From assembly GCF_001417735.1 (NCBI RefSeq), contig NZ_BBUZ01000023.1, positions 148,077 to 212,076 of the forward strand: a stretch of 64,000 bases of DNA, in the 5' to 3' direction. A program made the translations under genes and the position numbers. This document shows, piece by piece, positions 2,957 to 61,430 of this stretch. The notes beneath the pieces were generated by a model. That model was given only the letters and a program-made list of their open reading frames with translations, made no database searches and had not been told where the DNA came from. Numbering within the stretch: the first letter of the stretch is position 1; the number at the start of each line of letters is the position of its first letter. Source of the DNA: Streptomyces sp. NBRC 110028. Lineage in GTDB: Bacteria > Actinomycetota > Actinomycetes > Streptomycetales > Streptomycetaceae.

Positions 2957-3574
2957 TCAGCTCTGGTTGACCAGCTCCATGTAGCGGTCCCAGTCCCACA
3001 GCGGACCGGGGTCGGTGTGGTCGGCGCCGGGGACTTCGCTGTGGCCGATGATGTGGTCGCGGTTCCTCGGGATGCCGAAGCGGTCACAGACGGCGGCGGT
3101 GAGGGCGGCGGACGAGGCGTACATCTCATCGGTGAACCAGGCCGGGTCGTCCACCCACCCCTCGTGCTCGATGCCGATGCTGCGGTTGTTGTAGTCCTTG
3201 TTTCCCGCGTGCCAGGCGACGTCCTTCTCGCGGACGAACTGCCCGATATAGCCGTCGGCCGAGGCGACCAGGTAGTGGGCGGAGACCTGCTTGGCCGGGT
3301 CCTGGAAGATCTTCACCGCGTCCGGGAAGGTCTCCTGCGTCACATGGATGACGACAAAGTCGATCGGATAGGTCGTGGGGCGGCTGGAGACGCGGTAGTT
3401 GGAGGTGGAGGCGGGGATCCAGTGGGTGGGGGGATAGGCGGCGGCGCGGCGGGGGCGTCTGTCACCGGCGTGGGCGGTGGCGGCGGTCGCGGCGAGTCCG
3501 AGGGCGGCGGCGCCGAGACCGGCGCCGGTGCGGAGGAGGGTGCGTCGGGTGGGGGCAGGGCCGTGCGCTTCCAT
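2957..3574 (-). CDS. Tat-exported N-acetylmuramoyl-L-alanine amidase (Amidase_2)
   Basis: A 205-residue zinc amidase that cleaves the lactyl-amide bond between MurNAc and L-Ala in peptidoglycan. The N-terminus TRRTLLRTGAGLGAAALG is a twin-arginine signal, probably cleaved after AHA near residue 36. The catalytic domain (about 65-200) has VVIHVTQE (H77, zinc), WHAGNKDYNNRSIGIEHEG (E136/E138 region) and IIGHSEVP followed by HTDPG (H178 and D188, the other expected ligands). The start ATG is preceded by TGGGGGG. It is a single-domain enzyme with no cell-wall-binding module. The neighbouring GH25 and L,D-transpeptidase also point to wall turnover here. Confidence 0.9.
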   Translation of the reverse strand: MEAHGPAPTRRTLLRTGAGLGAAALGLAATAATAHAGDRRPRRAAAYPPTHWIPASTSNYRVSSRPTTYPIDFVVIHVTQETFPDAVKIFQDPAKQVSAHYLVASADGYIGQFVREKDVAWHAGNKDYNNRSIGIEHEGWVDDPAWFTDEMYASSAALTAAVCDRFGIPRNRDHIIGHSEVPGADHTDPGPLWDWDRYMELVNQS

Positions 3575-4005
3575 GGGGGGCTCCCGAATGCAGTGCCGAT
3601 ATCAGGGATCTGACGGGATGTGACGCGCGTAGCGCGGGTTCCATGGTGAGGCGTCGGCAGGGCCATGCCAAGAACCGACAGGCAAAGAAAGTAAGGCGCG
3701 TTTCGGTCTGAACCACTGGTAATTCCGCGCTGCCGCCACCAAGAGATGAACAGCAAGGGAAACTCACACCTTTACCCGCCATTAACAAGGCAAGTGTCAC
3801 AGCTCACCTTGGATTGAGTTGGAGGTGTTCTGCCGGTTCTGCAATAGTCAGGGCAGCGACCCCCATTGACCCGGGCCAGGTCGTTCCCCCGAATGCCGCG
3901 GAGCCACACCCCTTCCGCTCCGCGGCGGGGCGGACAGAGGTCCCCAAACCGCCGCACACGGCGGTGGGGCCCTCTGCCCTTTGTCTTCCGGTGCACCGGA
4001 TCACT
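3575..4005. other. Intergenic leader of the amidase gene
   Basis: No open frame here has convincing codon bias or a family match. The stretch is less GC-rich than its surroundings near 3690-3830 and should hold the amidase promoter and a long 5' leader. I looked for a ydaO/c-di-AMP riboswitch, because such leaders precede wall hydrolases in Streptomyces, and could not recognise one. Confidence 0.5.
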
Positions 4006-4656
4006 TCACGCGCCGTCGGCCACCCGCATCTCGAACCAGGTCGTCTTGCCGCACGGCAGCAGGTCCACGCCCCAGCGCTGGGAGAGCTGATCCACCAGCA
4101 TGAGGCCGCGCCCGCTGGTGTCGAGCGCCCCCACCGGCAGCAGACACGGCAGCCCGCGCGACGGATCGCGCACCTCGACCCGGATCCAGCCGCGACGGCG
4201 CAGCATCCGCAGCCCGAAGGTGCGGGCGCCGGTGTGCCGTACGGCATTGCCCACCAGTTCCGAGACGAGCAGCACCGCGTAGTCGGCGAGCTGGCAGGCG
4301 AGCCCCCAGTCGCGCAGCACCACGAATTCGGTCAACCGCCGGGCGGTGGCCGCGGATTCGGGCCGGGAGGGCAGCCGCACCTCTTGGTCCGCAGGATTCC
4401 CGAACAGTTCGAGCGCCCTGAAAGCCGGATCCTCCTCGGCGGACGGAAACCGCCGAACCGCAGCCGTACCCGTGCGCTGCTGCGGCTGCTCCATTCCCTC
4501 CAAGCCCGCCATGCCCCCCATGATGGCCGCCCGAAAGGCCGTCCGGGGCGGAACCAGGAGATTCCGAACACCGGAGCCCCAGGCTCCACAAACCGATCCC
4601 AGCTGTGCCATTGGCAGCGCAGTGAGCCAAAACACCCACCTGACCAGCGATGTCAC
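4006..4656 (-). CDS. ATP-binding anti-sigma-type protein (HATPase_c_2)
   Basis: Up to 216 residues. The C-terminal 130 form a GHKL ATPase domain of the RsbW/SpoIIAB kind. The motifs are LLVSELVGNAVRHTG (N box, Mg-ATP), VEVRDPSRGLP (G1) and TSGRGLMLVDQLSQRWGV (G2). Streptomyces carries dozens of these, used as anti-sigma kinases or stand-alone regulators. The start is uncertain: 4656 gives a hydrophobic N-terminus, while ATGs at 4611 and near 4520 (MGGMAGLEGMEQPQQ) would give more typical cytosolic proteins. The genes either side (amidase, enoyl-CoA hydratase) do not identify a partner sigma factor. Confidence 0.75.
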   Translation of the reverse strand: MTSLVRWVFWLTALPMAQLGSVCGAWGSGVRNLLVPPRTAFRAAIMGGMAGLEGMEQPQQRTGTAAVRRFPSAEEDPAFRALELFGNPADQEVRLPSRPESAATARRLTEFVVLRDWGLACQLADYAVLLVSELVGNAVRHTGARTFGLRMLRRRGWIRVEVRDPSRGLPCLLPVGALDTSGRGLMLVDQLSQRWGVDLLPCGKTTWFEMRVADGA

Positions 4657-4766
4657 CGCGCGTATAGGTGATCACCCAGCGTACCGGAACCGGCCATCGG
4701 GCGGCCGCGCGGCAGGCGAGGAAATTCGCCCGCACGGGGCATACCTGCGCGGCCGGGAAATCCCCG

Positions 4767-5534
4767 TCAGGAGAACCGGGCCTTGCCCGGGCCGTCCTCG
4801 ACGAAGCTCCGCATCCCGATCTCCCGGTCCTCGGTGGCGAACAGCCCGGCGAACCAGTTCCGTTCGATGGCGAGCCCGGTGTCGAGGCCCGTCTCGAGAC
4901 CCGCGTCCACCGCCTCCTTGGCGGCGCGCAGCGCCATCGCCGGACCCTTGGCCAGCTTCGCCGCCCAGGCGTGGGCCTGCTCGTACACCTCCTCGGCCGG
5001 TACGACCCGGTCGACCAGCCCGATGGCGGCGGCCTCGTCGGCCTTGACCTGTCGGCCCGTGAAGATGAGGTCCTTGGCCCGGGACGGGCCCACCAGTCGG
5101 GCCAGGCGCTGGGTGCCGCCCGCGCCCGGGATCAGTCCGAGCAGGATCTCGGGCTGGCCGAGCTTGGCGTTCTCGGCGGCGATCCGGAAGTCGGCGCACA
5201 GCGCCAGCTCGCAGCCGCCGCCGAGGGCGTAGCCGGTGACGGCGGCGACCACGGGCTTGGGGATGCGGGCGACGGCGGTGAACGCGTCCTGGAGGTCGCG
5301 GGAGCGGGCCACCATCGCGGCGTGGTCCATGTCCCGCATCTCCTTGATGTCCGCGCCCGCCGCGAACACCTTCTCGCCGCCCCAGACGACCACGGCCCGT
5401 ACGTCGTCCCGGCGGGTCACCTCACCGGCGAGTTCCCGCAGCCGGTCCTGGGTGGCGACATCGAGCGCGTTCATCGGGGGGCGGTCGAGGCGGAAGGTGG
5501 CCACGCCGTCGGCGACCTGGAGATGCACAGTCAT
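4767..5534 (-). CDS. Enoyl-CoA hydratase/isomerase
   Basis: A 255-residue crotonase-fold enzyme of full family length, which hydrates trans-2-enoyl-CoA in fatty-acid beta-oxidation or a related acyl-CoA pathway. The oxyanion-hole segments are FAAGADIKEM and GYALGGGCELALCADFRIA. The two catalytic glutamates are present, E109 in GGCELA and E129 in GQPEILLGLIPGAGG. The C-terminal helices (ERNWFAGLFATEDREIGM) match the trimerisation region. Exact acyl-CoA specificity cannot be read from sequence. It is a single gene on this strand, ending before the anti-sigma-like gene. Confidence 0.92.
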   Translation of the reverse strand: MTVHLQVADGVATFRLDRPPMNALDVATQDRLRELAGEVTRRDDVRAVVVWGGEKVFAAGADIKEMRDMDHAAMVARSRDLQDAFTAVARIPKPVVAAVTGYALGGGCELALCADFRIAAENAKLGQPEILLGLIPGAGGTQRLARLVGPSRAKDLIFTGRQVKADEAAAIGLVDRVVPAEEVYEQAHAWAAKLAKGPAMALRAAKEAVDAGLETGLDTGLAIERNWFAGLFATEDREIGMRSFVEDGPGKARFS

Positions 5535-5606
5535 AGACCGCAGATTAGTGGGCCGCGGACGGGGAGCGCCCCGGTGCGCTTGGTCACAACCGGGGCGCTG
5601 CCGGGC

Positions 5607-6833
5607 TCACGCCTTCCACTTCTCCCAGGACATGTTCCAGTCGCTGAGCCCGTTGCCCGGCTGGATCGTCTCGTCGTCCGAATGCTTCACGATGACCACG
5701 TCCCCGATGAGCGACTGGCCGAAGAACCAGGCCGCCGGGGTGGACGGGTCGCCTCCGCCGCGCTGCTCGAAGAGGCCGACGCAGCCGTGGCTGACATTGG
5801 CCGAGCCGAAGGTGGGACGGCCCGCCCAGTAGTTGCCGTGGAGGAAGGTGCCGGAGTCCGACAGCCGCATCGCGTGCGGCACGTCCTTGATGTCGTACTC
5901 CCCCTTGAAGCCGACCGTCGCGCCGTCCATCCGGGTCACGACGAGCTTCTCGCTGATGACCATGATGCCGTTGTACGTCTCGTGGCCGGGCGCGCCCGCG
6001 GTGATCGGGAGCGTCTTGAGGGTCTTGCCGTCCCGCTTGATCTTCATCGTGTGGGTCTTGGCGTCCACCACGGATATCTGGCTGCGGCCGATGGTGAACT
6101 TCACCGTCTTGCGCTGCTCCCCGTACACCCCCGGACGGCCCTCGACGCCGTCGAGGTCCAGCTTCAGGGTCACCTTGGTGCCGGGCTTCCAGTACGCCGA
6201 AGGCCGGAAGTCCAGCCGGTCGTTGCCGAACCAGTGGCTCGCGATCGGCACCGACGGGGAGGCGCTGACCTTGACGCTCTTCTCCACCGCGGCCGGGTGG
6301 GTGATGCCCCGGTTGAAGCGGAGCGAGACCGGCATGCCGACGCCGACCGTGGAGCCGTCCTCGGGGCTGAAGACGCCGACGAACGTCTCCTTCGGCTTGA
6401 GCGTGGTGAAGGTGGTGTGCTTGCGCGTGGCGCGGCCGTCCGCGTCCTTCGCGAGGGCGTCCACCGTGTATGTCGTGGCGGCGCGCAGACGACCGTCCGG
6501 CCGCCAGCTGGTGCCGCCCCCGGTGGTCTTCCCGGCGACCGCGCGGCCCTTCTCGTCCTCGACCTTCACGGACGTCAGCGTGCCCTTGGCCGCGGTGACC
6601 TTGAGCGCGCCTCCGGTGTCGACGCCCTTCGCGCCGTCCCCCGGCTCGACCTTGACCTCGGCCGTGGACGGCCGCGGCTTGGCGGCCTCGGTGTCCTTGG
6701 CCTCGCCGTCGCCGGAACCGCCGCCTCCGCCGCACGCGGTCACCAGCGCCAGCAGCGCGCCGAGCAGCAACGCGAGAAGCCCCCTGCGACCCCGCACGGT
6801 CGCCGCCCCCGATATCGGCCGCATCTTCACCAC
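5607..6833 (-). CDS. L,D-transpeptidase lipoprotein (YkuD, Ig-like repeats)
   Basis: A 408-residue lipoprotein that forms 3-3 cross-links in peptidoglycan. The signal peptide ends in the lipobox VTAC (C34), followed by a Gly/Ser linker. Two Ig-like domains (about 60-240) precede the YkuD catalytic domain, whose nucleophile lies in NVSHGCVGL (Cys near 351), with FLHGNYW upstream. This architecture matches the actinobacterial LdtMt2-type enzymes. I take the GTG at 6833 as the start because AGGGGAG lies six bases upstream; an ATG nine bases later is also possible. The nearby amidase and GH25 genes fit a wall-remodelling neighbourhood. Confidence 0.9.
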   Translation of the reverse strand: MVKMRPISGAATVRGRRGLLALLLGALLALVTACGGGGGSGDGEAKDTEAAKPRPSTAEVKVEPGDGAKGVDTGGALKVTAAKGTLTSVKVEDEKGRAVAGKTTGGGTSWRPDGRLRAATTYTVDALAKDADGRATRKHTTFTTLKPKETFVGVFSPEDGSTVGVGMPVSLRFNRGITHPAAVEKSVKVSASPSVPIASHWFGNDRLDFRPSAYWKPGTKVTLKLDLDGVEGRPGVYGEQRKTVKFTIGRSQISVVDAKTHTMKIKRDGKTLKTLPITAGAPGHETYNGIMVISEKLVVTRMDGATVGFKGEYDIKDVPHAMRLSDSGTFLHGNYWAGRPTFGSANVSHGCVGLFEQRGGGDPSTPAAWFFGQSLIGDVVIVKHSDDETIQPGNGLSDWNMSWEKWKA

Positions 6834-13747: not shown

Positions 13748-16066
13748 GTGAGCCTCTTCCCCCAACGGCACCTCAGACCTCACAGACCCCATCGACACCG
13801 CGCCACGGCCGGCGCCCTAATGGCCGCCGCCGCGATGATCGTCGTCGGTGTCCAGACCGGTCCCGCGACCGCACGCGCGGGGGACGCCGCCACCGCCGCG
13901 GGCGGCACGATGGCCGCCAAGGCCCGCCCCGGCGCGCTGCCCGCGCAGCTGTCCCCCGCGGCCCGCACCACGCTGATCCGCGCCGCCGACACCGCCTCCG
14001 CGAAGGCCGCCACCGCGAGGACGCTGGACCTCGGGTCCCGGGAGAAGCTGGTCGTCAGGGACGTCATCAAGGACGCCGACGGCACCACTCACACCCGCTA
14101 CGAACGCACCTACGCCGGGCTTCCCGTCCTCGGCGGCGATCTGGTCGTGGACCGCGCCGAGGGCGGCGCGGTGGAGACGGTCGCGAAGGCCACCAAGGCC
14201 CGCCTGACGATCCCGACGACCACCGCGGCCGTCGAGCCCGCCACCGCCGAGAAGGCCGCCGTGAAGGCGGCGGACGCGCAGGGCTCGCGGAAGACCGCGG
14301 CGCGGCGGGCGCCGCGCAAGGTGATCTGGGCGGCGGACGGCAGGCCGACGCTCGCGTACGAGACCGTCGTCGGCGGCCTCCAGGAGGACGGCACGCCCAA
14401 CGAGCTGCACGTCATCAGCGACGCGGCCACCGGAAGCAAGCTGTTCCAGTACCAGGGCGTCAAGAACGGCACCGGCAAGAGCCAGTACAGCGGGCAGGTC
14501 GCCCTCGGCACCTCGGGCAGCGCGGGCTCGTACAACCTGACCGACGCCGGGCGCGGCAGCCACAAGACGTACAACCTGAACCGCGGCACCTCGGGCACCG
14601 GCACCCTGTTCACCGACGCCGACGACGTCTGGGGCAGCGGCACCACCGCCGACGCCGCCACCGCCGGGGTCGACGCCCACTACGGCGCCGCCGAGACGTG
14701 GGACTACTACAAGAACGTGCACGGCCGCACCGGCATCCGGGGCGACGGCGTGGGCGCGTACTCCCGGGTCCACTACAGCAGCGGCTATGTCAACGCCTTC
14801 TGGCAGGACGCCTGCTTCTGCATGACGTACGGCGACGGCTCCGGCAACGCCAAGCCGCTGACCTCGATCGACGTGGCGGCGCACGAGATGAGCCACGGTG
14901 TCACCGCGGCCACCGCCAGACTGGTCTACAGCGGCGAGTCCGGCGGCCTCAACGAGGGCACCTCCGACATCTTCGCCGCTGCGGTCGAGTTCGCCGCGGA
15001 CAACGCGTCCGACGTGGGCGACTACCTCGTCGGCGAGAAGATCGACATCAACGGCGACGGCACCCCGCTGCGCTACATGGACAAGCCCAGCAAGGACGGC
15101 GCCTCCAAGGACAACTGGTACGCGGGCGTCGGCAACGTGGACGTGCACTACTCGTCCGGTATCGCCAACCACTTCTTCTACCTGCTCTCCGAGGGCAGCG
15201 GCGCCAAGGAGATCAACGGCGTCAGCTACAACAGCCCGACCTCCGACGGGCTGCCGGTCACCGGCATCGGCCGGGACGCCGCCGAGCAGGTGTGGTTCAA
15301 GGCGCTCAGCCAGCGCATGACGTCCATCACCGACTACGCCGCCGCGCGCGAGGCGACGCTGTGGGCGGCGGGCGAGCTGTACGGCCAGGGCGGCCCCCAG
15401 TACAACGCGGTGGCGAACGCCTGGGCCGGGGTGAACGTCGGCACCCGCATCGCCGAGGGCGTCACCGTCACCCCGCCCGGCGACCAGACCAGCATCGTCG
15501 GCCAGGCCACCAGCGCGCAGATCAAGGCCACCAGTTCCAACCCGGGCGCGCTGAGCTACGCGGCCACCGGGCTGCCGGCGGGCCTCGCGCTCGACTCCGC
15601 CACCGGTCTGATCTCCGGCACCCCGACCGCCGAGGGCGCAAGCGCGGTGACCGTGACGGTGACCGACTCGGCGGGCAGGACCGGCACCGCGTCGTTCACC
15701 TGGACCGTCACCACCACCAGCGGCAACGTCTTCGAGAACACCACGGACGTCGCCATTCCGGACGGGGGCGACGCCGTCACCTCCCCGGTCACCGTGACCC
15801 GGGCCGGGAACGCCCCGTCCGCCCTCCAGGTGGCCGTGGACATCACCCACAGCTACCGCGGTGACCTGGTGATCGACCTGATCGCCCCGGACGGTACGGC
15901 CTACCGGCTCAAGGACTCCAGCATCTCCGACTCGGCGGACGACGTGAAGGCCACGTACACCGTGGACGCCTCCTCCGAGACCGCGGTCGGCACCTGGGAC
16001 CTGAAGGTCCAGGACATCTACCCGCAGGACTCCGGCACCATCAACGGCTGGAAGCTGACCTTCTGA
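13748..16066 (+). CDS. Secreted M4 metalloprotease with Ig-like and P domains
   Basis: A 772-residue thermolysin-family (M4) zinc protease precursor. The order is: signal peptide (to about residue 40), an FTP/PepSY propeptide (about 95-230, with KLVVRDVIKDADG and YAGLPVLGGDLVV), and the M4 catalytic domain with HEMSH (H379), SGGLNEGTSD and DVHYSSGIANHFFYLL. A putative Ig domain (about 580-660) and a proprotein-convertase P domain (about 665-772, DITHSYRGDLVIDLIAPDG) follow. The P domain is absent from the two downstream paralogues. The GTG is preceded by AAGGAG. The enzyme should be exported and self-activated to degrade extracellular protein. Confidence 0.93.
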   Translation: MSLFPQRHLRPHRPHRHRATAGALMAAAAMIVVGVQTGPATARAGDAATAAGGTMAAKARPGALPAQLSPAARTTLIRAADTASAKAATARTLDLGSREKLVVRDVIKDADGTTHTRYERTYAGLPVLGGDLVVDRAEGGAVETVAKATKARLTIPTTTAAVEPATAEKAAVKAADAQGSRKTAARRAPRKVIWAADGRPTLAYETVVGGLQEDGTPNELHVISDAATGSKLFQYQGVKNGTGKSQYSGQVALGTSGSAGSYNLTDAGRGSHKTYNLNRGTSGTGTLFTDADDVWGSGTTADAATAGVDAHYGAAETWDYYKNVHGRTGIRGDGVGAYSRVHYSSGYVNAFWQDACFCMTYGDGSGNAKPLTSIDVAAHEMSHGVTAATARLVYSGESGGLNEGTSDIFAAAVEFAADNASDVGDYLVGEKIDINGDGTPLRYMDKPSKDGASKDNWYAGVGNVDVHYSSGIANHFFYLLSEGSGAKEINGVSYNSPTSDGLPVTGIGRDAAEQVWFKALSQRMTSITDYAAAREATLWAAGELYGQGGPQYNAVANAWAGVNVGTRIAEGVTVTPPGDQTSIVGQATSAQIKATSSNPGALSYAATGLPAGLALDSATGLISGTPTAEGASAVTVTVTDSAGRTGTASFTWTVTTTSGNVFENTTDVAIPDGGDAVTSPVTVTRAGNAPSALQVAVDITHSYRGDLVIDLIAPDGTAYRLKDSSISDSADDVKATYTVDASSETAVGTWDLKVQDIYPQDSGTINGWKLTF

Positions 16067-16126
16067 CACACCGTCCGCAACCCCATCCGCACCCTCGCCC
16101 TTCGCGGCGGTGAACCACCAGAACCA

Positions 16127-16165
16127 GGCGCCGCCAGGAGTGACCCGACTCCTCCTGGCGGCGTC
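16127..16165. terminator. Hairpin after the first M4 protease gene
   Basis: CGCCGCCAGGAG at 16129-16140 pairs perfectly with CTCCTGGCGGCG at 16152-16163 across an 11-base loop. It is a strong stem without a long T tract, as is usual for Streptomyces. It lies 60 bases after the stop codon. Confidence 0.8.
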
Positions 16166-16349
16166 TCCATGCGCGTTTCCCTGCGCGTTTCCCTGCACAA
16201 ATTCCGCCAGACCCGCCGGGAAACCCGTGACATGTCCGCGGCTTGTATGACAGTCTGCCCACGCATTACGCACCAGTACCTCTTGTTCAGTGCCGAGCCG
16301 CGCTTCCCGCTGACCGGCACTGACCCCCCACAGCAACGAGGGAGTTAGC

Positions 16350-53499: not shown

Positions 53500-53964
53500 A
53501 TGGACAGCGAGGAGCAGGAGATGGCGGGGCTCAGCGGTAGGAGCGCGGTCGCGATTCACGCGCTCACCATGCTGGCCAACCGGCGTGGGGGCTCGCTGAC
53601 TTCCGCCGAGATCGCGGAAAGCCTTGAGAGCAATCCGGTCCTCGTACGGCGCGTTCTCGGCCGCCTGCGGGACGCCGATCTGGTGTGGTCCACCGAGGGT
53701 CGAGCGGGGGGCTGGTCCCTCGCCCGCGCCCCGCGGGACATCACGCTCTACGACGCGTACGCGGCCGTCGAGGACGGACAGGTCTTCTCGCGGCACGCCC
53801 ATCCGCCCAGTGGCGCGTGCGAGATCGGACGCAGCATCGGCGACCTGCTCGACGTCGAGTTCCGGAACGCGGAACGAGCCCTGGAGGAGCGACTCGGCAG
53901 GACGACGATCGCCGGCCTGCTGGGGCGGGTGCTGGCCTCCGGCAGCGAACCGAGGGATCACTGA
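53500..53964 (+). CDS. Rrf2-family transcriptional regulator
   Basis: A 154-residue Rrf2 regulator. The winged helix covers about 8-75 (SGRSAVAIHALTMLANRRGG, ESLESNPVLVRRVLGRLRDA, STEGRAGGWSLAR). Only one cysteine is present (SGACEIGRS), so the three-Cys iron-sulphur cluster of IscR/NsrR is absent. This matches the YwnA subgroup that senses other signals. The ATG at 53500 or 53521 may start it. Operator-like repeats before and after the gene suggest control of itself and of the downstream amidohydrolase. Confidence 0.9.
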   Translation: MDSEEQEMAGLSGRSAVAIHALTMLANRRGGSLTSAEIAESLESNPVLVRRVLGRLRDADLVWSTEGRAGGWSLARAPRDITLYDAYAAVEDGQVFSRHAHPPSGACEIGRSIGDLLDVEFRNAERALEERLGRTTIAGLLGRVLASGSEPRDH

Positions 53965-54141: not shown

Positions 54142-55383
54142 GTGCCCCAGGAATCCGAAGCACCAGCGAGCACCGAAGCCCGCGACCCCGCCACCTACGA
54201 CCTCGTGATCAGTCGCGCACACCTCTTCGACGGCCGCCAGGCGCTCGCCGGTCTGTACGACATCGCCATCAACGGCGCGGAGATCGCTTCCGTCTCGGCG
54301 GACCCACTCAGAGGCACACAGGAGGTGGACACGGCCGGAGGATGGGTCATGCCGGGCCTGATCGACACCCATATCCACTTCTACGACGTGCACGCGGTCG
54401 TTGATCCGGATTCGATGCGGGGCTTCGAGGAGAACGAGCTTCCAGGAAGGCTCGGGCTGTTCCTCGACCACGGGATCACCACCATCAAGTCGGTGGGCGA
54501 TCCGACGGGCGGAATCCTGGACACGCGGGCCAAAATCGCCGCAGGCACGCTGCGGGGCCCACGACTGCTGGCGACCGGTTGCGGTATCACCGGACGCGAC
54601 GGGCATCCCGCCGCCACTGTCTTCAGCGGCAACCCCTGGGCGCGCGAGCGCTTCACAGCAGAGGTCGGCAGCGTGCGGCAGATCCGCGACCTGGTGCACC
54701 ATCTCGCCGACCGCGAGGTGGACGCGATCAAACTCTTGTCGGAAGGCGCGTGCGCACACTCCGGCGGGCCGAAGTACCTCTGGCAGAATCCCGCCTTTCC
54801 GGATGGTGTCGAGCTGGAACGGCTCCCCCTCGATCTCCTTCGGGCGGGCATCGAGACCGGGCACGAGCGGGGCCTTCGGGTAACCGTCCACACCACCCAG
54901 CAAGCCGCGGCACGCGAGGCGATCGAGGCCGGGGCGGACGGCCTGGAGCACGGCGTCACCGTCGAGCCCCTCACCGACCACTCGCTCATCGACCTGATGC
55001 TCGAACATGACATCACCTACACGCCCACACTGTGGATCGACGATGCCCACCCGGACGCCCGCGGCAATCTCAAGAAGGTCGCCGAGGCCGGCGTGCACAT
55101 CGCGCTGGGCAGCGACACCTTCAGCGGTCGGGGCCTGTTCGGAGCCAACACTCTGGAAGAGGCCGAACTCATGGTGGCGGCCGGACTGACGCCCACCCAG
55201 GTGCTCGCCGCAGGCACCAGCGGCGCGGCGCGGCAGTGTGTCCGCCCCGACCTCGGCACGGTGGCCCCCGGCAAGCGCGCCGACCTGCTCGTGCTGAACG
55301 CCGATCCCACCGCGGACGTCGGCAACCTTCGCGACCTCAGCACAGTGATCCTGAACGGCGGGCTCGTCGTCGACAAGCGCTAG
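54142..55383 (+). CDS. Amidohydrolase (imidazolonepropionase-like)
   Basis: A 413-residue metal-dependent amidohydrolase of the urease superfamily. The first metal motif is GLIDTHIHFYDVH. DAIKLLSEGA may provide the bridging Lys, VHTTQQAA and LEHGVTVEP the further His ligands, and IALGSDTFSG the final Asp. The C-terminal beta domain (LGTVAPGKRADLLVLNADPT) completes the fold. Substrates in this subgroup include prolidase-type dipeptides and cyclic amides, and cannot be chosen here. The GTG at 54142 is a weak start choice, and the leader from 53965 is long. It follows the Rrf2 gene, its probable regulator. Confidence 0.88.
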   Translation: MPQESEAPASTEARDPATYDLVISRAHLFDGRQALAGLYDIAINGAEIASVSADPLRGTQEVDTAGGWVMPGLIDTHIHFYDVHAVVDPDSMRGFEENELPGRLGLFLDHGITTIKSVGDPTGGILDTRAKIAAGTLRGPRLLATGCGITGRDGHPAATVFSGNPWARERFTAEVGSVRQIRDLVHHLADREVDAIKLLSEGACAHSGGPKYLWQNPAFPDGVELERLPLDLLRAGIETGHERGLRVTVHTTQQAAAREAIEAGADGLEHGVTVEPLTDHSLIDLMLEHDITYTPTLWIDDAHPDARGNLKKVAEAGVHIALGSDTFSGRGLFGANTLEEAELMVAAGLTPTQVLAAGTSGAARQCVRPDLGTVAPGKRADLLVLNADPTADVGNLRDLSTVILNGGLVVDKR

Positions 55384-55645: not shown

Positions 55646-56782
55646 TCAGCCGAAGAGCGGCCAGGACGGTCCACTCTCCCGAGTGCCGAGCCATGCGGTG
55701 TGCCCGCCGGGGGTGACCGTGAGACCGAAGTCGTGCACATGCGGACGTCCCGCGTCCTCCCACCAAGCCGATTCCGCCGACGCTTCGTCGAACAGGTCTC
55801 GTGGCCCCCACTGGTGCACCGCGTCGTCGTCGATGAGCGCCCACGAGTCCTCGCTGCACAGCCAATGGCCTGTGCCCGCTTGCTCCCAGTAGTGCACCCC
55901 CGGCAGACGCAGCCCCACCGCGAACCGGGCGTCATCGTCGCCCAGGAGGGCGGGGCGACTACCGAGACCTCGATGTCGGGCTTCCTCCCATGCCTCGTCC
56001 GTGAACATCTCCGCGAGGCGCGCCCGGTGTCGTTGTCCACGCAACGTCATGAACGTCACCGGCGTGCGGAACCGGCCCGAAGCCCGCCCGCCCCGAACGG
56101 TGAGCCGCACCATGCCGTGAGGGCACATCGCGGTCTCCCACGGAGCAACGATCAAGCCGCCCTCTGCCGTCTGCTCCACCCATTCCTGCGGGAGCCGCAG
56201 CAGGGAGGCCGTGGCCAGGACGCGATCGTAGGGCGCGCGGGAAGGCACCCCGCCCTCCCCGTCCGCGCAGACGATGCGCACGTGGCAGTCGGCGGCGGCG
56301 AGGGAAGCGCGGGCCTGAGCGCTGATGCGCGGGTCGATCTCCACGCTGGTGACATGTGCTTCCCCGACCAGGTGGGCCATGAGGGCGGCATTGAACCCCG
56401 TACCCGTCCCGATCTCCAGGACCCGCTGCCCGGGTCGGAGATCGGCGGCGGCCAGCATGAGGGCGACCACGCTCGGCCGGGAAGCCGAAGAGGTGGGTGT
56501 GGCCCAGTGGTCGTCCAACGGCTCGGGTGCGCCGTCGTCGATCTGGGTGACCACGGAGACGTCGCTGTAGGCCGCGGCCCACCAGCGGTCCGGGTCGCTG
56601 ACCCGGTCCACCAGTACGTACCCGGTACTGGCGGTGCTGTCGTCCAGCCACACGCGATCGGGCAGGAACAGGTGGCGCGGCACCGCCTCGAACGCGTCCC
56701 GCAACCGGCCGTCGTCCAGGTAGCCGTCCGTGGCGAGCGTCGAGGCCAGCCGTGCCTGACCTTCGGCTTCAGTGGCGGTCAC
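55646..56782 (-). CDS. RiPP-associated isoaspartyl-methyltransferase homologue (candidate imiditide-forming enzyme)
   Basis: A 378-residue SAM-dependent methyltransferase of the protein-L-isoaspartate type. The N-terminal part has FEAVPRHLFLPDRVWL. Motif I is VLEIGTGTGFNAALMAHLVG, and RVLATASLLRLPQEWVEQTA covers motif III. The C-terminal extension ends SAWWEDAGRPHVHDFGLTVT and then WLGT, the kind of motif (WW..GRP...FG) seen in PIMT homologues of lasso peptide, graspetide and imiditide clusters. The tgmC product here has the same feature. Its GTG start overlaps the stop of a 44-codon ORF for a cationic peptide, so methylation of an Asp in that peptide, giving an aspartimide, is the inferred role. 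Ordinary protein repair is less likely given the extension. Confidence 0.85.
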   Translation of the reverse strand: MTATEAEGQARLASTLATDGYLDDGRLRDAFEAVPRHLFLPDRVWLDDSTASTGYVLVDRVSDPDRWWAAAYSDVSVVTQIDDGAPEPLDDHWATPTSSASRPSVVALMLAAADLRPGQRVLEIGTGTGFNAALMAHLVGEAHVTSVEIDPRISAQARASLAAADCHVRIVCADGEGGVPSRAPYDRVLATASLLRLPQEWVEQTAEGGLIVAPWETAMCPHGMVRLTVRGGRASGRFRTPVTFMTLRGQRHRARLAEMFTDEAWEEARHRGLGSRPALLGDDDARFAVGLRLPGVHYWEQAGTGHWLCSEDSWALIDDDAVHQWGPRDLFDEASAESAWWEDAGRPHVHDFGLTVTPGGHTAWLGTRESGPSWPLFG

Positions 56783-56913
56783 CTCTTGTCGCCGTTACCG
56801 CCGCCGTGTTTCGGTCCGGGCGCCGGCCCGCTCCCGTCCGGGGAGGGCTTCGGCCCGATGACCGGCCCTCCCGGCTTCGCATGCCCACCCCTGCCGTGCT
56901 GCTGAGCCCGCAC
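56779..56913 (-). CDS. Candidate imiditide-type precursor peptide (44 residues)
   Basis: A short ORF with a GTG start behind GGAGAGGGGAAGGCA and a TGA that overlaps the methyltransferase GTG by four bases (GTGA). The peptide starts MRAQQHGRGGHAKPGG, continues PVIGPKPSPDGSGPAPG and ends in KHGGGNGDKR. It has seven Lys/Arg, three His and only two Asp (D26, D42), so it is clearly cationic. D26 is followed by Gly in PDGSG, the sequence most prone to aspartimide formation. Third codon positions are mostly G or C. Imiditide precursors, as I know them, are positively charged linear peptides modified by an adjacent PIMT homologue. No cysteine is present, so a lanthipeptide is excluded. The start could lie further upstream. 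Confidence 0.6.
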   Translation of the reverse strand: MRAQQHGRGGHAKPGGPVIGPKPSPDGSGPAPGPKHGGGNGDKR

Positions 56914-57027: not shown

Positions 57028-57231
57028 TCACGCCCGAGGGGCGGACACGATCCCTCCGCCGACGAGGGAGGCCCGGAACTCCGCCCAGGCGGCGGGGGTG
57101 AGGCGGACCATCGGCCCGTCGGGGCGCTTCGAGTCGCGTATCGCCACCGCACCGGGCACGTTGGTGGCCACCTCGACGCACTCGTGCTCGGGGTCGCTGT
57201 AGCTCGACTTGCGGAAATCGAAAGCTGTCAC
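57028..57231 (-). CDS. DUF397 protein (first copy)
   Basis: A 67-residue DUF397 protein: FDFRKSSYSDPEHECVEVAT, then VAIRDSKRPDGPMVRLTPAAWAEF, in two adjoining segments. DUF397 proteins are encoded next to XRE/DUF5753 regulators across actinobacteria and are thought to bind and antagonise them, sometimes together with an ATP-binding protein. The GTG at 57231 overlaps the stop of the second copy, so both are translated from one message with the XRE gene. It is nearly identical to its neighbour over more than 100 bases, which marks a recent duplication. Confidence 0.9.
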   Translation of the reverse strand: MTAFDFRKSSYSDPEHECVEVATNVPGAVAIRDSKRPDGPMVRLTPAAWAEFRASLVGGGIVSAPRA

Positions 57232-57369
57232 CGCTTGGCCTCCCCCGCAACCACGGCCTGGAAGTCCGCCCAAGCAGCAGGCATGAACCGGAGTATCGGC
57301 CCGTCGGGGCGCTTCGAGTCGCGTATCGCCACCGCACCGGGCACGTTGGTGGCCACCTCGACGCACTCG
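57110..57369. repeat. 75-bp identical direct repeat in the two DUF397 genes
   Basis: Bases 57110-57184 and 57295-57369 are identical, offset by 185 bases, and near-identity continues for another 38 bases. This is a tandem gene duplication that recombination could collapse. Confidence 0.9.
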
Positions 57370-57416
57370 CGCTCGGGGTCACTGTAACTCGACTTGCGGA
57401 ATGTGAAATCAGGCAT
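57228..57416 (-). CDS. DUF397 protein (second copy)
   Basis: A 62-residue DUF397 protein, MPDFTFRKSSYSDPERECVE at the start and AWADFQAVVAGEAKR at the end. The ATG at 57416 or a GTG six bases earlier, which overlaps the XRE stop (GTGA), may be used. The middle is identical in amino acids to the other copy, but the C-terminal helix differs (ILRFMPAAWADFQ against MVRLTPAAWAEFR). It is probably the direct partner of the XRE protein, because it is the copy coupled to it. Confidence 0.88.
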   Translation of the reverse strand: MPDFTFRKSSYSDPERECVEVATNVPGAVAIRDSKRPDGPILRFMPAAWADFQAVVAGEAKR

Positions 57417-57418
57417 GG

Positions 57419-58297
57419 TCACAGCTCTCTGCTGAGGCGGGAAATGAGTTCCAGGGAGTCGCGCTCATTATGGGCTCGCGTGGCGATTCTCTCGAACAAC
57501 TCGTCGTACTGTGCAGCCGCTTCCCCACCTTCCACCCAGAGCCGGTTGAAAGGAACCTCCATGTAGACCACGTCCATGGCGCCCGGCTCGGAGAACGAGA
57601 TGATGTTGAAGGTGCAGTTCATCCCGTGACGGGCTCCCGTGCTGAACGGGAGCACCCTCAAACTGACACTGGGTTTTCCAGCGACGTCGGCCAGATGGTC
57701 CAGCTGCTCCCGCATCACGTCCGCGCCACCGATCAGGTTCCGCAACGCGGCCTCGTACACCACCGCCCGCAGTGAGAGCTGCGGCGACTCATCGAGCCGC
57801 CGCTGGCGTGCGAGCCGCGCCGCCACGAACCGCTCGTGATCGCCACCTTCCGCCGATGGAGCGTCATCCCTGAGAGCCCGGATGTAGTCGGGAGTCTGCA
57901 GGAGTCCCGGGACAAAGGTGAGCTGCCATGCCTTGATGGCGGTCGCCGCACTCTCCAGAGCTACGTACTCCTGCATGTCCCCGAGGTTCGGGAACTCGTT
58001 CCACCAACCCTTCGCCTTGCGGCGCTCGCGGTCGACGCGGGCCAGCTCCAGCAGCCCGCCCACGATCGCCGGATCGCTCACGCCGTATAACTCGCACAGC
58101 GCACGGATGTCCGGGTCCCGCACCGGAACCCAGCCGCCCTCCATCTTCGCGACCTTGGTCGTGGAGCCGGTGAGGGCCTTGGCGGCGTGGGTCTGCGTCA
58201 GGCTCGCCGCCGTGCGGAGCTTGATCAGCTCCCCGCCAAGCCTGCGTCCCAGAACGGTCGAGGTGCTGTTGCCCTGCATGGGCTGACTCGTCGTCAC
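57419..58297 (-). CDS. XRE-family regulator with DUF5753 domain
   Basis: A 292-residue regulator. The N-terminal helix-turn-helix (about 10-70) reads LGGELIKLRTAASLTQTHAA and ALTGSTTKVAKMEGGW. The rest is the DUF5753 domain (WQLTFVPGLLQTPDYIRALR, VYMEVPFNRLWVEG), a likely ligand- or partner-binding module. The GTG at 58297 gives a start MTTSQPMQGNSTST typical of the family; a GTG at 58327 is also in frame. It is coupled to the DUF397 genes and divergent from an ATP-binding protein. Such trios often regulate development or secondary metabolism, and here they lie between two RiPP units. Confidence 0.92.
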   Translation of the reverse strand: MTTSQPMQGNSTSTVLGRRLGGELIKLRTAASLTQTHAAKALTGSTTKVAKMEGGWVPVRDPDIRALCELYGVSDPAIVGGLLELARVDRERRKAKGWWNEFPNLGDMQEYVALESAATAIKAWQLTFVPGLLQTPDYIRALRDDAPSAEGGDHERFVAARLARQRRLDESPQLSLRAVVYEAALRNLIGGADVMREQLDHLADVAGKPSVSLRVLPFSTGARHGMNCTFNIISFSEPGAMDVVYMEVPFNRLWVEGGEAAAQYDELFERIATRAHNERDSLELISRLSREL

Positions 58298-58347
58298 GCG
58301 CACAGTCTGGCTGCCTCCCACCGCCACCGCAAACTAGATCGGGGGAA

Positions 58348-58362: not shown

Positions 58363-58464
58363 CTTGTGCAGTTCTCGACACCAGGGCTACGGTCCGTGAT
58401 GAACCGCTTGCACAGGGACGTCAGTTGGCGGACGTGCTCCGCCCTGCCCACCCGGAGGTACGCG

Positions 58465-58899
58465 ATGGAACTCGCGCCCCAAGACCCCGTCATCAACGAA
58501 AACCGCGTCGACTACGTCCCGACACCGATAAGCGTGACCCGTGCCCGCCAGCACGCCGCCCGACTGGTGGCCGAGTGGGGCCACGCCGCCCTCGCCGACG
58601 ACGTCGCGCTCATCGTTTCCGAGCTGGCGAGCAACGCCGTACGGCACGGCCGCGTTCCGGGGCGGCTGTTCCGCGTCCACCTCACCCTGATGAAAACCGC
58701 GCTGCGCATCGCCGTCTCCGACCCCAAGGGCGAACGACTCCCCCACCCCCGGCAGCCGTCACCCGAGGACCGGCACGGCCGTGGCCTGCTCATCGTCCGC
58801 GCGCTCGCCGCCCGCTGGGGCGTACGCGAGCGCACTGTCGGCAAGGAAATCTGGGCCGAACTCGACCTGACCAGCTCGCTCTCCACCGGCCAGTCCTGA
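58465..58899 (+). CDS. ATP-binding regulator (HATPase_c_2)
   Basis: A 144-residue GHKL ATPase of the anti-sigma/AbaA-D type. Motifs: IVSELASNAVRHGRVPG (N box), AVSDPKGERLP (G1) and DRHGRGLLIVRALAARWGV (G2). The ATG at 58465 is chosen because GGAGG lies seven bases upstream; the frame is open for 33 codons before it without a good ribosome-binding site. Together with the XRE and DUF397 genes it forms a common Streptomyces regulatory module. It is followed by the graspetide operon on the same strand. Confidence 0.88.
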   Translation: MELAPQDPVINENRVDYVPTPISVTRARQHAARLVAEWGHAALADDVALIVSELASNAVRHGRVPGRLFRVHLTLMKTALRIAVSDPKGERLPHPRQPSPEDRHGRGLLIVRALAARWGVRERTVGKEIWAELDLTSSLSTGQS

Positions 58900-58976: not shown

Positions 58977-59273
58977 GTGACCACTTTCGCGCATCCACAA
59001 GAGGCGTTTCCGCTCCTACCGCTCGGCGGACGGCTTCTCCAGAGTGACGAGGCGCCCTCGGGCTCCACCACGCGCCCGTGGATTCTTCGTTTCGCCTGTG
59101 TGCCCGACCGCACGCAGACGATCGAGAAACCGGTGGCTGTCTACGACGACGCAGCGCAGATGTCAGTCGGCCTCTACGACGGCCCGCTGCCGTACATGGC
59201 CACTCACAGTCCCACCGTTCCCGACGGCAACATGACCAATCCCCCTCCCCTCGATGAGGGCCCGAAGGATTGA
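58977..59273 (+). CDS. tgmA: Graspetide precursor peptide TgmA
   Basis: A 98-residue ATP-grasp-modified RiPP precursor. The leader contains TTRPWILRFACVP (residues 31-43), like the PxxLR motif used for recognition by the maturase. The C-terminal core, about residues 70-98, has hydroxyl donors T76, S78, T80 and T87 (YMATHSPTVPDGNMT) and acceptors D83, D93, E94 and D98 (PLDEGPKD). D83-G84 is the best site for an aspartimide. The GTG start follows GAGAGGAAGG at a somewhat long spacing. The maturase gene begins five bases after the stop. The ring pattern cannot be deduced from sequence. Confidence 0.85.
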   Translation: MTTFAHPQEAFPLLPLGGRLLQSDEAPSGSTTRPWILRFACVPDRTQTIEKPVAVYDDAAQMSVGLYDGPLPYMATHSPTVPDGNMTNPPPLDEGPKD

Positions 59274-59277
59274 AGTC

Positions 59278-60243
59278 ATGCCCACCATCCTCGTGATCGC
59301 CGCCCGCGACGACTGGCCGACGGACCGCGTCGTGAACGTACTCACCGGCCGAGGGGCGCGGGTATTCCGGATGGACACCGCGGACTTTCCGCAGCAGGCC
59401 ACCCTCACGGGGCGTATCGACGCCCGGCGCGGGTGGGCAGGCGGACTCGCCACACCTCATCGGGCCGTCGACCTTTCGGACATCGAAGCCGTCTACTTCC
59501 GCGCACCTCACCAGTTCCGTCTCCCGCATGGAATGTCCCAGCCCGAACGACGGTTCGCCGCGGCGCAGGCACGAGCGGGGTTCGGTGGGGTGATCACATC
59601 GCTCACGGCCCGGTGGGTCAACCACCCAGCGGCGATGACTCGCGCCGAGTACAAGCCGGTCCAACTCTCCACAGCCCGTGAGTGCGGACTGACCATCCCT
59701 CCGACCCTGGTGACGAACGACCCGGACGCCGTCAAGGCGTTCGCCGAGGACACACCAGGTCCCATCATCTGCAAACCCGTGGCCTCGCCGGTCTTCATCG
59801 AAGGCAATGAACTCAAGACCGTGTACACCCGTTGCCTCTCCCCACACGATCTGGTCGATCTGGACGGCATCGACGCCACCGCCCATCTCTTCCAAGCCTG
59901 GATCGACAAGGCCTACGAGGTGCGGCTCACCATCGCAGGCGACCGTCTACTCGCCGCGGAAGTCCATGCCGGCAGCGCCCGAGGGCATGAGGACTGGCGC
60001 AGCGACTACGGCTCTCTCACCTATCACCGGACCGACACGCCCGCCGACGTCGCCGATGGGGTGCGCTGTCTGATGGGCCGTCTGGGCCTTCGCTTCGCCG
60101 CCCTCGATTTCGTTGTCTCACCATCGGGAGCGTGGACGTTCCTGGAGGCGAATCCATGCGGCCAATGGGACTGGATCCAAGGCGCCACGGGTCTGCCCAT
60201 CGCCGAGGCCATCGCCGATGAGCTACAAGGAGTCCCCGCGTGA
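59278..60243 (+). CDS. tgmB: ATP-grasp peptide maturase TgmB
   Basis: A 321-residue ATP-grasp ligase that should join Ser/Thr side chains of TgmA to Asp/Glu side chains as esters. The N-terminal domain reads PTILVIAARDDWPTDRVVNV. The MvdD/TgmB-like landmarks are VYFRAPHQFRLP (precursor-contacting region), PIICKPVASPVF (ATP Lys), FQAWIDKAYEVRLTIAGDRL and FLEANPCGQWDW (Mg-binding Glu/Asn). The ATG at 59278 follows AAGGA. The methyltransferase gene overlaps its stop (GTGA). The set of three genes matches the SAV_5884-type graspetide clusters common in Streptomyces. Confidence 0.92.
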   Translation: MPTILVIAARDDWPTDRVVNVLTGRGARVFRMDTADFPQQATLTGRIDARRGWAGGLATPHRAVDLSDIEAVYFRAPHQFRLPHGMSQPERRFAAAQARAGFGGVITSLTARWVNHPAAMTRAEYKPVQLSTARECGLTIPPTLVTNDPDAVKAFAEDTPGPIICKPVASPVFIEGNELKTVYTRCLSPHDLVDLDGIDATAHLFQAWIDKAYEVRLTIAGDRLLAAEVHAGSARGHEDWRSDYGSLTYHRTDTPADVADGVRCLMGRLGLRFAALDFVVSPSGAWTFLEANPCGQWDWIQGATGLPIAEAIADELQGVPA

Positions 60244-61430
60244 GTGTCCCCAGCTTCGACGGCGCGTCAGCGCGACTGCATGCGCTGGTCGAAAAATTAC
60301 AGCAGTCGGGAGCGATCTATTCGGCGGCCTGGGCCGAGGCGTTCGCGGGTGTGCCGCGCCACGTCTTCGTGCCCCAGTGGTACGGGCAGGAGACCGACGA
60401 CAGGGGCATCACCGTATGGCGCCGGAACGACGCGGCCGACCGGGACGTCTGGCAAGCAGCCGTCTACAGCGACCAGACCCTCGTCACGGCACTCGATCCC
60501 GACACCGCCGAGCGCGTCGGCGAGCGCGCGTGGACCGGTATTCCGACGTCCTCCAGCACGTTGCCCAGCCTCATGGCGCAGATGCTGGAGGACCTGAGCG
60601 TGGCCGACGGCCACCGCGTACTCGAAGTCGGCACGGGCACCGGCTACAACGCGGCCCTCCTGTGCGCGCGGCTGGGCGATCGCCTCGTGCAGTCCGTCGA
60701 CGTCTCCCCCGCTCTCGTCGAAGCCGCCCGCGGTCGGCTCGCCTCCGTGGGTTACCGGCCGCACCTCGCCGCTGGAGACGGGCAAGGAGGTCTCCTGGGG
60801 CGTGCCCCGTTCGACCGGATCATGGCTACCTGCTCGGTCCCCCGCGTACCTGCCGCATGGATCGAGCAGATCCGGCCCGGCGGCGTCATCCTGACCGACG
60901 TGTCCATGGGGATCGAAGGCGGTCTGGTCCGCCTGACCGTTGACAAAGAGCGACGCGCCACCGGCCACTTCACCACCACGACCGGACGCTTCATGCCCGC
61001 CCGCAGCGACGCCCATGCCTACCGGCGCCCCGAGCGAGCGCCGTACGCGCCCCGGGCCGGGTCCCGGCCCACGACCCTCACCGCTGTCGACATCCGCGAG
61101 CACTACCCGTTCCGGCTACTGCTCGCGTTCCACATCCCGGGCGCCGAGCTGGTCTATCACGTGGACGACGAAACCGGCGCCATGTCGCTCCAGCTCCAGC
61201 AGCACGACGGCGCGTGGGCACGCGCCCCCATCACCGGAGAACGCGCCGCAGGGCCCAGCGCCATCGTCACGTACGGCGGGAGCACCGACCTGTGGCGACA
61301 GGCAGAGCGCGCCTGGCGGTGGTGGAACGACCACGGCCGACCGGCGCAGGACCGCTTCGGCTACGCCCGCGAGGCCGATGGGCGCCACTATGCGTGGCAC
61401 CTTCCGGACGGGCTCCGCTGGCCTTTGTAG
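60240..61430 (+). CDS. tgmC: Graspetide O-methyltransferase TgmC (PIMT homologue)
   Basis: A 396-residue isoaspartyl-methyltransferase homologue of the ATP-grasp peptide system. Motif I is VLEVGTGTGYNAALLCARLG. FAGVPRHVFVPQWYG is the conserved N-terminal segment, and RIMATCSVPRVPAAWIEQIR follows the SAM site. The C-terminal extension ends RAWRWWNDHGRPAQDRFGYA and WHLPDG. In studied graspetides (fuscimiditide type) this enzyme methylates a core Asp of the cyclised peptide, which then closes to an aspartimide; D83 of TgmA is the likely target. The GTG start is coupled to tgmB. A hairpin at 61664 ends the operon. Confidence 0.92.
   Translation: MSVPSFDGASARLHALVEKLQQSGAIYSAAWAEAFAGVPRHVFVPQWYGQETDDRGITVWRRNDAADRDVWQAAVYSDQTLVTALDPDTAERVGERAWTGIPTSSSTLPSLMAQMLEDLSVADGHRVLEVGTGTGYNAALLCARLGDRLVQSVDVSPALVEAARGRLASVGYRPHLAAGDGQGGLLGRAPFDRIMATCSVPRVPAAWIEQIRPGGVILTDVSMGIEGGLVRLTVDKERRATGHFTTTTGRFMPARSDAHAYRRPERAPYAPRAGSRPTTLTAVDIREHYPFRLLLAFHIPGAELVYHVDDETGAMSLQLQQHDGAWARAPITGERAAGPSAIVTYGGSTDLWRQAERAWRWWNDHGRPAQDRFGYAREADGRHYAWHLPDGLRWPL

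What the first reader, a model, noticed from the sequence alone, without database searches (positions are those of the whole stretch)
55646..56913. Two-gene candidate imiditide locus: cationic 44-residue peptide coupled to a PIMT homologue
Seen: a short ORF (56779-56913, minus) ends in a TGA overlapping the GTG of a methyltransferase. It has a purine-rich ribosome-binding site, high GC at third positions, net positive charge, no Cys, and one internal Asp in PDGSG. Known: imiditides are RiPPs made from a linear cationic precursor by a stand-alone PIMT homologue that converts one Asp to aspartimide. Inference: D26 is the modified residue and this pair is a new imiditide-type system.
Basis: partly seen in the sequence, partly recalled or inferred. 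Interest (0 to 1): 0.85.

Follow-up and report, generated by a model that had tools for sequence, protein, structure and literature searches.

The report
Imiditide (type I pamtide) gene pair
A Streptomyces-type genome carries a tiny gene for a 44-residue peptide next to an enzyme that probably converts one of its aspartates into a strained ring (aspartimide); [quoted passage not shown]

Summary
Window 56779-56913 (-) is a 44-codon ORF whose TGA overlaps the GTG of a PIMT-like methyltransferase (55646-56782). In this GC-rich DNA an open frame of that size is common by chance, so conservation had to decide, and it does. Of 99 distinct homologous methyltransferases found, 79 have a short Gly/Pro/Asp-rich ORF ending at the methyltransferase start. 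A profile built from those peptides without the window's own ranks the window peptide first of 993 six-frame segments, above 2000 shuffles of its own sequence. D26 falls on the one invariant Asp column. The enzyme has the extra C-terminal domain and the WXXXGXP motif (WEDAGRP) of RiPP-associated PIMTs, and clusters in a tree with methyltransferases that have such precursors. It is therefore a new member of a class with about 1,400 listed members, not a new system. Two close relatives have lost the precursor by clean deletion but keep the enzyme. A separate graspetide cluster lies 2 kb away, behind an XRE/DUF397/ATPase module. The chemistry itself is inferred.

The parts
56779..56913 (-). imiditide / type I pamtide precursor, 44 aa; predicted modified residue D26 in PSPDGSG
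   Evidence: position and G/P/D-rich make-up shared with 78 other upstream ORFs; first of 993 window segments with a profile that excludes it; D26 on the invariant Asp column
55646..56782 (-). RiPP-type protein L-aspartyl O-methyltransferase (PAMT, PIMT homologue), 378 aa, with C-terminal extension and WEDAGRP (341-347)
   Evidence: PCMT 112 bits; TIGR04188 313 bits (cut-off 380); WXXXGXP; model pLDDT 94, PIMT fold (1jg1 Z 28.8), 1DL5 (T. maritima) aligned over 309 residues, 8-371
56779..56782 (-). GTGA overlap of precursor stop and methyltransferase start (translational coupling, inferred)
   Evidence: a 4-bp NTGA overlap is available at 43 of 79 homologous pairs
57028..57231 (-). DUF397 protein (second of two), 67 aa, 114 bp upstream of the precursor
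   Evidence: PF04149 67.8 bits; GTGA overlap with the previous gene
57228..57422 (-). DUF397 protein (first of two)
   Evidence: PF04149 70.3 bits
57419..58327 (-). XRE-type regulator with DUF5753, likely regulator of the locus (inferred)
   Evidence: PF19054 179.8 bits, HTH_31; XRE-DUF5753 within 6 kb of 14 of 40 related PAMT loci against about 4 per Mb in the genome
58366..58899 (+). HATPase_c_2 (anti-sigma-like, AbaA-like) protein, divergent from the XRE gene
   Evidence: PF13581 52 bits

Best explanation
The two genes form a compact RiPP pathway of the imiditide/type I pamtide class. Shown here: a conserved short precursor family encoded directly before RiPP-type PIMT homologues, of which this is a member. 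Inferred from characterised members (NmaA/NmaM, SpaA/SpaM): the precursor and the methyltransferase are translated together; the acidic C-terminal domain of the enzyme holds the cationic linear peptide, mainly by its basic C-terminal part; the enzyme methylates the side-chain carboxyl of D26 with SAM; the backbone NH of G27 attacks the ester, loses methanol and gives an aspartimide (-18 Da), which then hydrolyses mostly to isoaspartate. The XRE/DUF397 genes upstream probably control expression. The role of the product is unknown for the whole class; a secreted signalling or membrane-active peptide is a guess.
For: Conserved small ORF before 79 of 99 homologues; window peptide first of 993 segments with an independent profile; D26 on the invariant Asp column of 26 aligned precursors; close-relative precursors vary mainly at third codon positions (8/8/30 variable sites at positions 1/2/3), so the peptide family is under protein-level selection; window PAMT lies in a clade (99/93) with DSDGQ-type imiditide PAMTs and the genome's own L115 pair, apart from the graspetide PAMTs; WXXXGXP present; full-length match to 1DL5 including the C-terminal domain; peptide and C-terminal-domain charges are negatively correlated after independent contrasts (r -0.29, p 0.011, 76 contrasts), in line with the electrostatic recognition reported in PMC13001092. 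Class definition and chemistry: PMC10787088, PMC13001092.
Against: No close homologue of this very precursor was found; the nearest methyltransferases are 50-54% identical and carry a DSDGQ rather than a PDGSG core. Some relatives keep the enzyme without a precursor. No mass or activity data. The C-terminus here (KHGGGNGDKR) is longer than in most relatives and lacks the common THRK end.
Confidence: 0.88

Rival explanations
1. The methyltransferase is a tailoring enzyme of the neighbouring graspetide cluster (58977-61430, +) and the 44-codon ORF is incidental.
For: A GRASP_targ peptide and a SAV_5884-type ATP-grasp lie 2 kb away, and the best NCBIfam match of the methyltransferase is TIGR04188, the ATP-grasp system methyltransferase.
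Against: The graspetide cluster has its own PAMT at 60240-61430 (368 bits to TIGR04188), which groups with graspetide PAMTs, while this one groups with imiditide PAMTs. The imiditide PAMTs scanned score below the TIGR04188 cut-off (260-313 bits). The ORF carries the conserved motif.
Confidence: 0.05
2. The enzyme is an ordinary protein-repair PIMT and the ORF is chance.
For: It has the PCMT domain and PIMT fold, and ORFs of this length are frequent by chance here.
Against: C-terminal extension of about 125 residues with WXXXGXP; the peptide family is conserved upstream in 79 of 99 homologues; the same genome holds ten strong TIGR04188 matches.
Confidence: 0.03
3. The short ORF is a translated leader that only couples translation to the methyltransferase; the true substrate is another protein.
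For: GTGA overlap; two relatives keep an intact methyltransferase after clean deletion of the precursor, with no other copy of it found in the genome.
Against: Amino-acid conservation with excess third-position change and the invariant Asp would not be needed for coupling alone; SpaA and NmaA are modified by their partners (PMC10787088, PMC13001092).
Confidence: 0.04

Closest known systems
Type I pamtide SpaA/SpaM, Streptomyces sparsogenes (PMC10787088)
   Same: Two-gene locus; type I precursors are ~45 aa, Gly/Pro-rich, with a conserved Asp near Pro/Gly; PIMT homologue with the extra C-terminal domain; charged C-terminus.
   Different: Sequence; chemistry shown there, only predicted here.
Imiditide NmaA/NmaM, Nonomuraea maritima (PMC13001092)
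   Same: Stand-alone PIMT homologue acting on a linear charged precursor; acidic stretch in the enzyme's C-terminal region (here GDDDA and IDDDA).
   Different: NmaA has His after the modified Asp; here it is Gly, the usual aspartimide-prone neighbour.
Uncharacterised precursors of the DSDGQ group (L092, L034, L095-L100)
   Same: Nearest methyltransferases (about 50-54% identity for most); shared H-x-KP start, PSP before the Asp, Gly-rich basic end.
   Different: Core PRDSDGQ..GGGTHRK rather than PDGSG..PKHGGGNGDKR.
Graspimiditides (fuscimiditide, amycolimiditide; PMC13001092)
   Same: Related methyltransferase family and WXXXGXP; such a cluster lies next door.
   Different: Need an ATP-grasp-cyclised substrate; no ATP-grasp belongs to the pair in question.

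Membership tests
Imiditide / type I pamtide | Two-gene cluster of precursor and PIMT homologue without a primary enzyme of another RiPP class in the same unit | tested here: met
   Minus-strand unit holds only XRE, two DUF397, precursor and PAMT; the ATP-grasp next door is on the other strand with its own PAMT
Imiditide / type I pamtide | Precursor of ~45 aa rich in Gly, Pro, Asp/Lys with at least one conserved Asp near Pro/Gly | tested here: met
   44 aa, 53% Gly+Pro in the last 40 residues; D26 on the invariant Asp column
Imiditide / type I pamtide | PIMT homologue with C-terminal extension of over 100 residues and WXXXGXP motif | tested here: met
   378 aa; WEDAGRP 341-347; C-terminal domain modelled with high confidence, 1DL5 aligned to residue 371
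Imiditide / type I pamtide | Charged precursor ends matched to the enzyme's charge | tested here: met
   Peptide +5, C-terminal domain -11; modest negative correlation over the family after contrasts
Imiditide / type I pamtide | Aspartimide on the linear precursor as the class-defining modification | not testable with these tools
   Needs expression and mass spectrometry
Type II pamtide / cysimiditide | Two CXXCXGXG motifs around the Asp | tested here: not met
   No Cys in the peptide
Graspimiditide | PAMT encoded with an ATP-grasp and GRASP_targ precursor in one unit | tested here: not met
   Those genes are on the + strand and have their own PAMT at 60240-61430; tree places the two PAMTs apart

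The most novel reading that the evidence does not exclude
The imiditide pair and the neighbouring graspetide cluster, divergent around one XRE/DUF397/HATPase (whiJ-bldB-abaA-like) module, are co-regulated and make two aspartimide peptides that act together, perhaps as signals in Streptomyces development.
Probability: 0.12. Interest if true: 0.6.

Novelty: new member of a known kind. Interest (0 to 1): 0.33.

Why it matters
It adds a well-supported member, the most cationic precursor of the 78 pairs scored, to a young RiPP class whose purpose is unknown. The survey gives modest family-wide support for charge matching between precursor and enzyme. It also shows natural precursor deletions beside intact enzymes, and an excess of XRE-DUF5753 regulators near the pairs; all three can be tested in the laboratory.

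Tried and rejected
phmmer with the window peptide alone was uninformative: with composition correction only the peptide itself stood out, and without it many G/P-rich chance segments scored; the profile test with shuffles replaced it. The second-best profile hit in the window, ending near 3340 (-), is an out-of-frame segment inside another gene (2957-3574, -) and was rejected. ORF length and third-position GC alone were rejected as proof. The genome-contig scan found a single relative, in Streptomyces avicenniae. Promoter and terminator scans gave nothing useful: promoter-like 1 found, 0.2 expected; terminator-like 2 found, 1.5 expected. The 2023 JACS imiditide paper is not held and supplementary lists could not be read, so whether this exact precursor is already listed is unknown. 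A look in the BldB paper for methyltransferases or RiPPs found no mention.

Full report
What is there. On the minus strand lie, in order, an XRE/DUF5753 regulator (57419-58327), two DUF397 genes (57228-57422, 57028-57231), a 114-bp gap, a 44-codon ORF (56779-56913) and a PIMT-like methyltransferase (55646-56782). The DUF397 genes overlap each other by GTGA, and so do the ORF and the methyltransferase. On the plus strand, divergent, lie a HATPase (58366-58899), a GRASP_targ peptide (58977-59273), a SAV_5884-type ATP-grasp (59254-60243) and a second PIMT homologue (60240-61430).

Is the ORF more than chance? Not on length: shuffled local sequence has such an ORF in 30% of stop-delimited segments. 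Conservation decides. Searches of relatives, the genus and the class plus fetched regions gave 99 distinct homologous methyltransferases. Under one rule (G+P+D at least 34% in the last 40 residues, Arg at most 15%, stop near the enzyme start), 79 have a small upstream ORF. That rule selects by composition, so I tested the window peptide independently. A profile from the other genomes' peptides, window excluded, put it first of 993 six-frame segments of the window, at 30.0 bits (all precursors) and 33.9 bits (subset), against a next best of 23.2 and 25.9 and a maximum of 25.3 and 25.4 among 2000 shuffles of its own residues. The next best hit is an out-of-frame Pro-rich stretch of another gene.

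Coding nature of the family. In the closest group (L092, L034, L095-L099) the precursor varies at 8, 8 and 30 sites at codon positions 1, 2 and 3, with mostly synonymous differences. The window precursor itself has no close DNA relative, so this test could not be run on it directly.

The modified residue. In an alignment of 26 precursors from several enzyme clades the single invariant Asp column holds D26; D42 has no counterpart in nearly all. The 26 were picked for a Pro/Ser-Asp core, so the column is partly there by choice; within the window enzyme's own clade the alignment around D26 is less certain because relatives have DSDG. D26 is followed by Gly, which favours aspartimide formation (general knowledge).

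The enzyme. It matches PCMT (112 bits) and, below the curated cut-off, TIGR04188 (313 of 380 bits). Other imiditide PAMTs score 260-290 and a true graspetide PAMT of the same genome 492. WEDAGRP at 341-347 is the WXXXGXP motif of RiPP-associated PIMTs (PMC13001092). The AlphaFold2 model (pLDDT 94) has the PIMT fold; Thermotoga 1DL5, the one solved relative said to share the C-terminal domain (PMC10787088), aligns over 309 residues to position 371, with rmsd 6.8 that I take to reflect a domain shift. In the tree the window enzyme sits in a supported clade (99/93) with DSDGQ-type imiditide PAMTs and the genome's own L115 pair, on a long branch; the neighbouring graspetide PAMT falls elsewhere.

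Charge. The window peptide is the most positive of 78 pairs (+5) and the C-terminal domain is -11. Over the family, peptide and C-terminal-domain charge are negatively correlated, also after independent contrasts (r -0.29, p 0.011). This fits electrostatic recognition, but is modest. Only 36% of precursors are net positive and 52% are net negative, so positive charge does not define the class.

Two close relatives (L093, L094) have an intact methyltransferase but no precursor. Their DNA aligns with that of precursor-bearing sisters up to clean deletions with different left ends; in L094 the deletion runs between GGAACGCAC-like repeats and leaves MGTHDQ-stop. No other copy was found in those genomes. 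This shows secondary loss rather than a spurious ORF, and raises the question why the enzyme persists.

Regulatory setting. XRE-DUF5753 genes lie within 6 kb of 14 of 40 related PAMT loci, against 30-45 per genome of 8-12 Mb, that is about 5% expected; binomial p 1e-8, or 2e-6 with near-identical loci collapsed. Co-occurrence of DUF397/DUF5753 with graspimiditides has been reported (PMC13097080); XRE-DUF397 pairs have been linked to antibiotic production and development (PMC6262351, PMC10364602, PMC10294661). Control of this locus by its XRE gene is inference.

Verdict. It is a new member of a known class; the modification, the final product and its role remain untested. The genus (Streptomyces) is inferred from the genome size, the kin found and the named relative.

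Noticed in passing
window 58977-61430 (+): A graspetide (graspimiditide-type) cluster: GRASP_targ precursor (24.5 bits, just under cut-off 25), SAV_5884-family ATP-grasp (385 bits), and its own PAMT; core ends in TVPDGNMTNPPPLDEGPKD.
   Followed up: partly
L093 ~5980 and L094 ~6010 (upstream of the PAMT): Precursor gene cleanly deleted while the PAMT is intact; in L094 between short direct repeats that encode GTH at both ends of the precursor. No other copy found in either genome.
   Followed up: partly
L114 (own genome): PAMT 15150-16190 (-) and PAMT 3998-5125 (-) with ATP-grasp 5137-6099: A second place in the same genome where an imiditide-type pair and a graspetide PAMT lie about 10 kb apart, as in the window.
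   Followed up: no
L112, L113, L114, L115 (own genome): At least four further imiditide-type precursor/PAMT pairs in this genome, e.g. PSPDGSSPEGDGKHRK and NSDGQVPPPQPGNGTHRK.
   Followed up: partly
L101 ~5855: Relative with a shortened candidate precursor MGKHPPPSPPPDPKRKKG beside a PAMT whose sister L040 has a full-length one.
   Followed up: no
window 53500-53964 (+) and 54142-55383 (+): Rrf2-type regulator and an amidohydrolase downstream of the pair on the other strand; no link to the pair seen.
   Followed up: no
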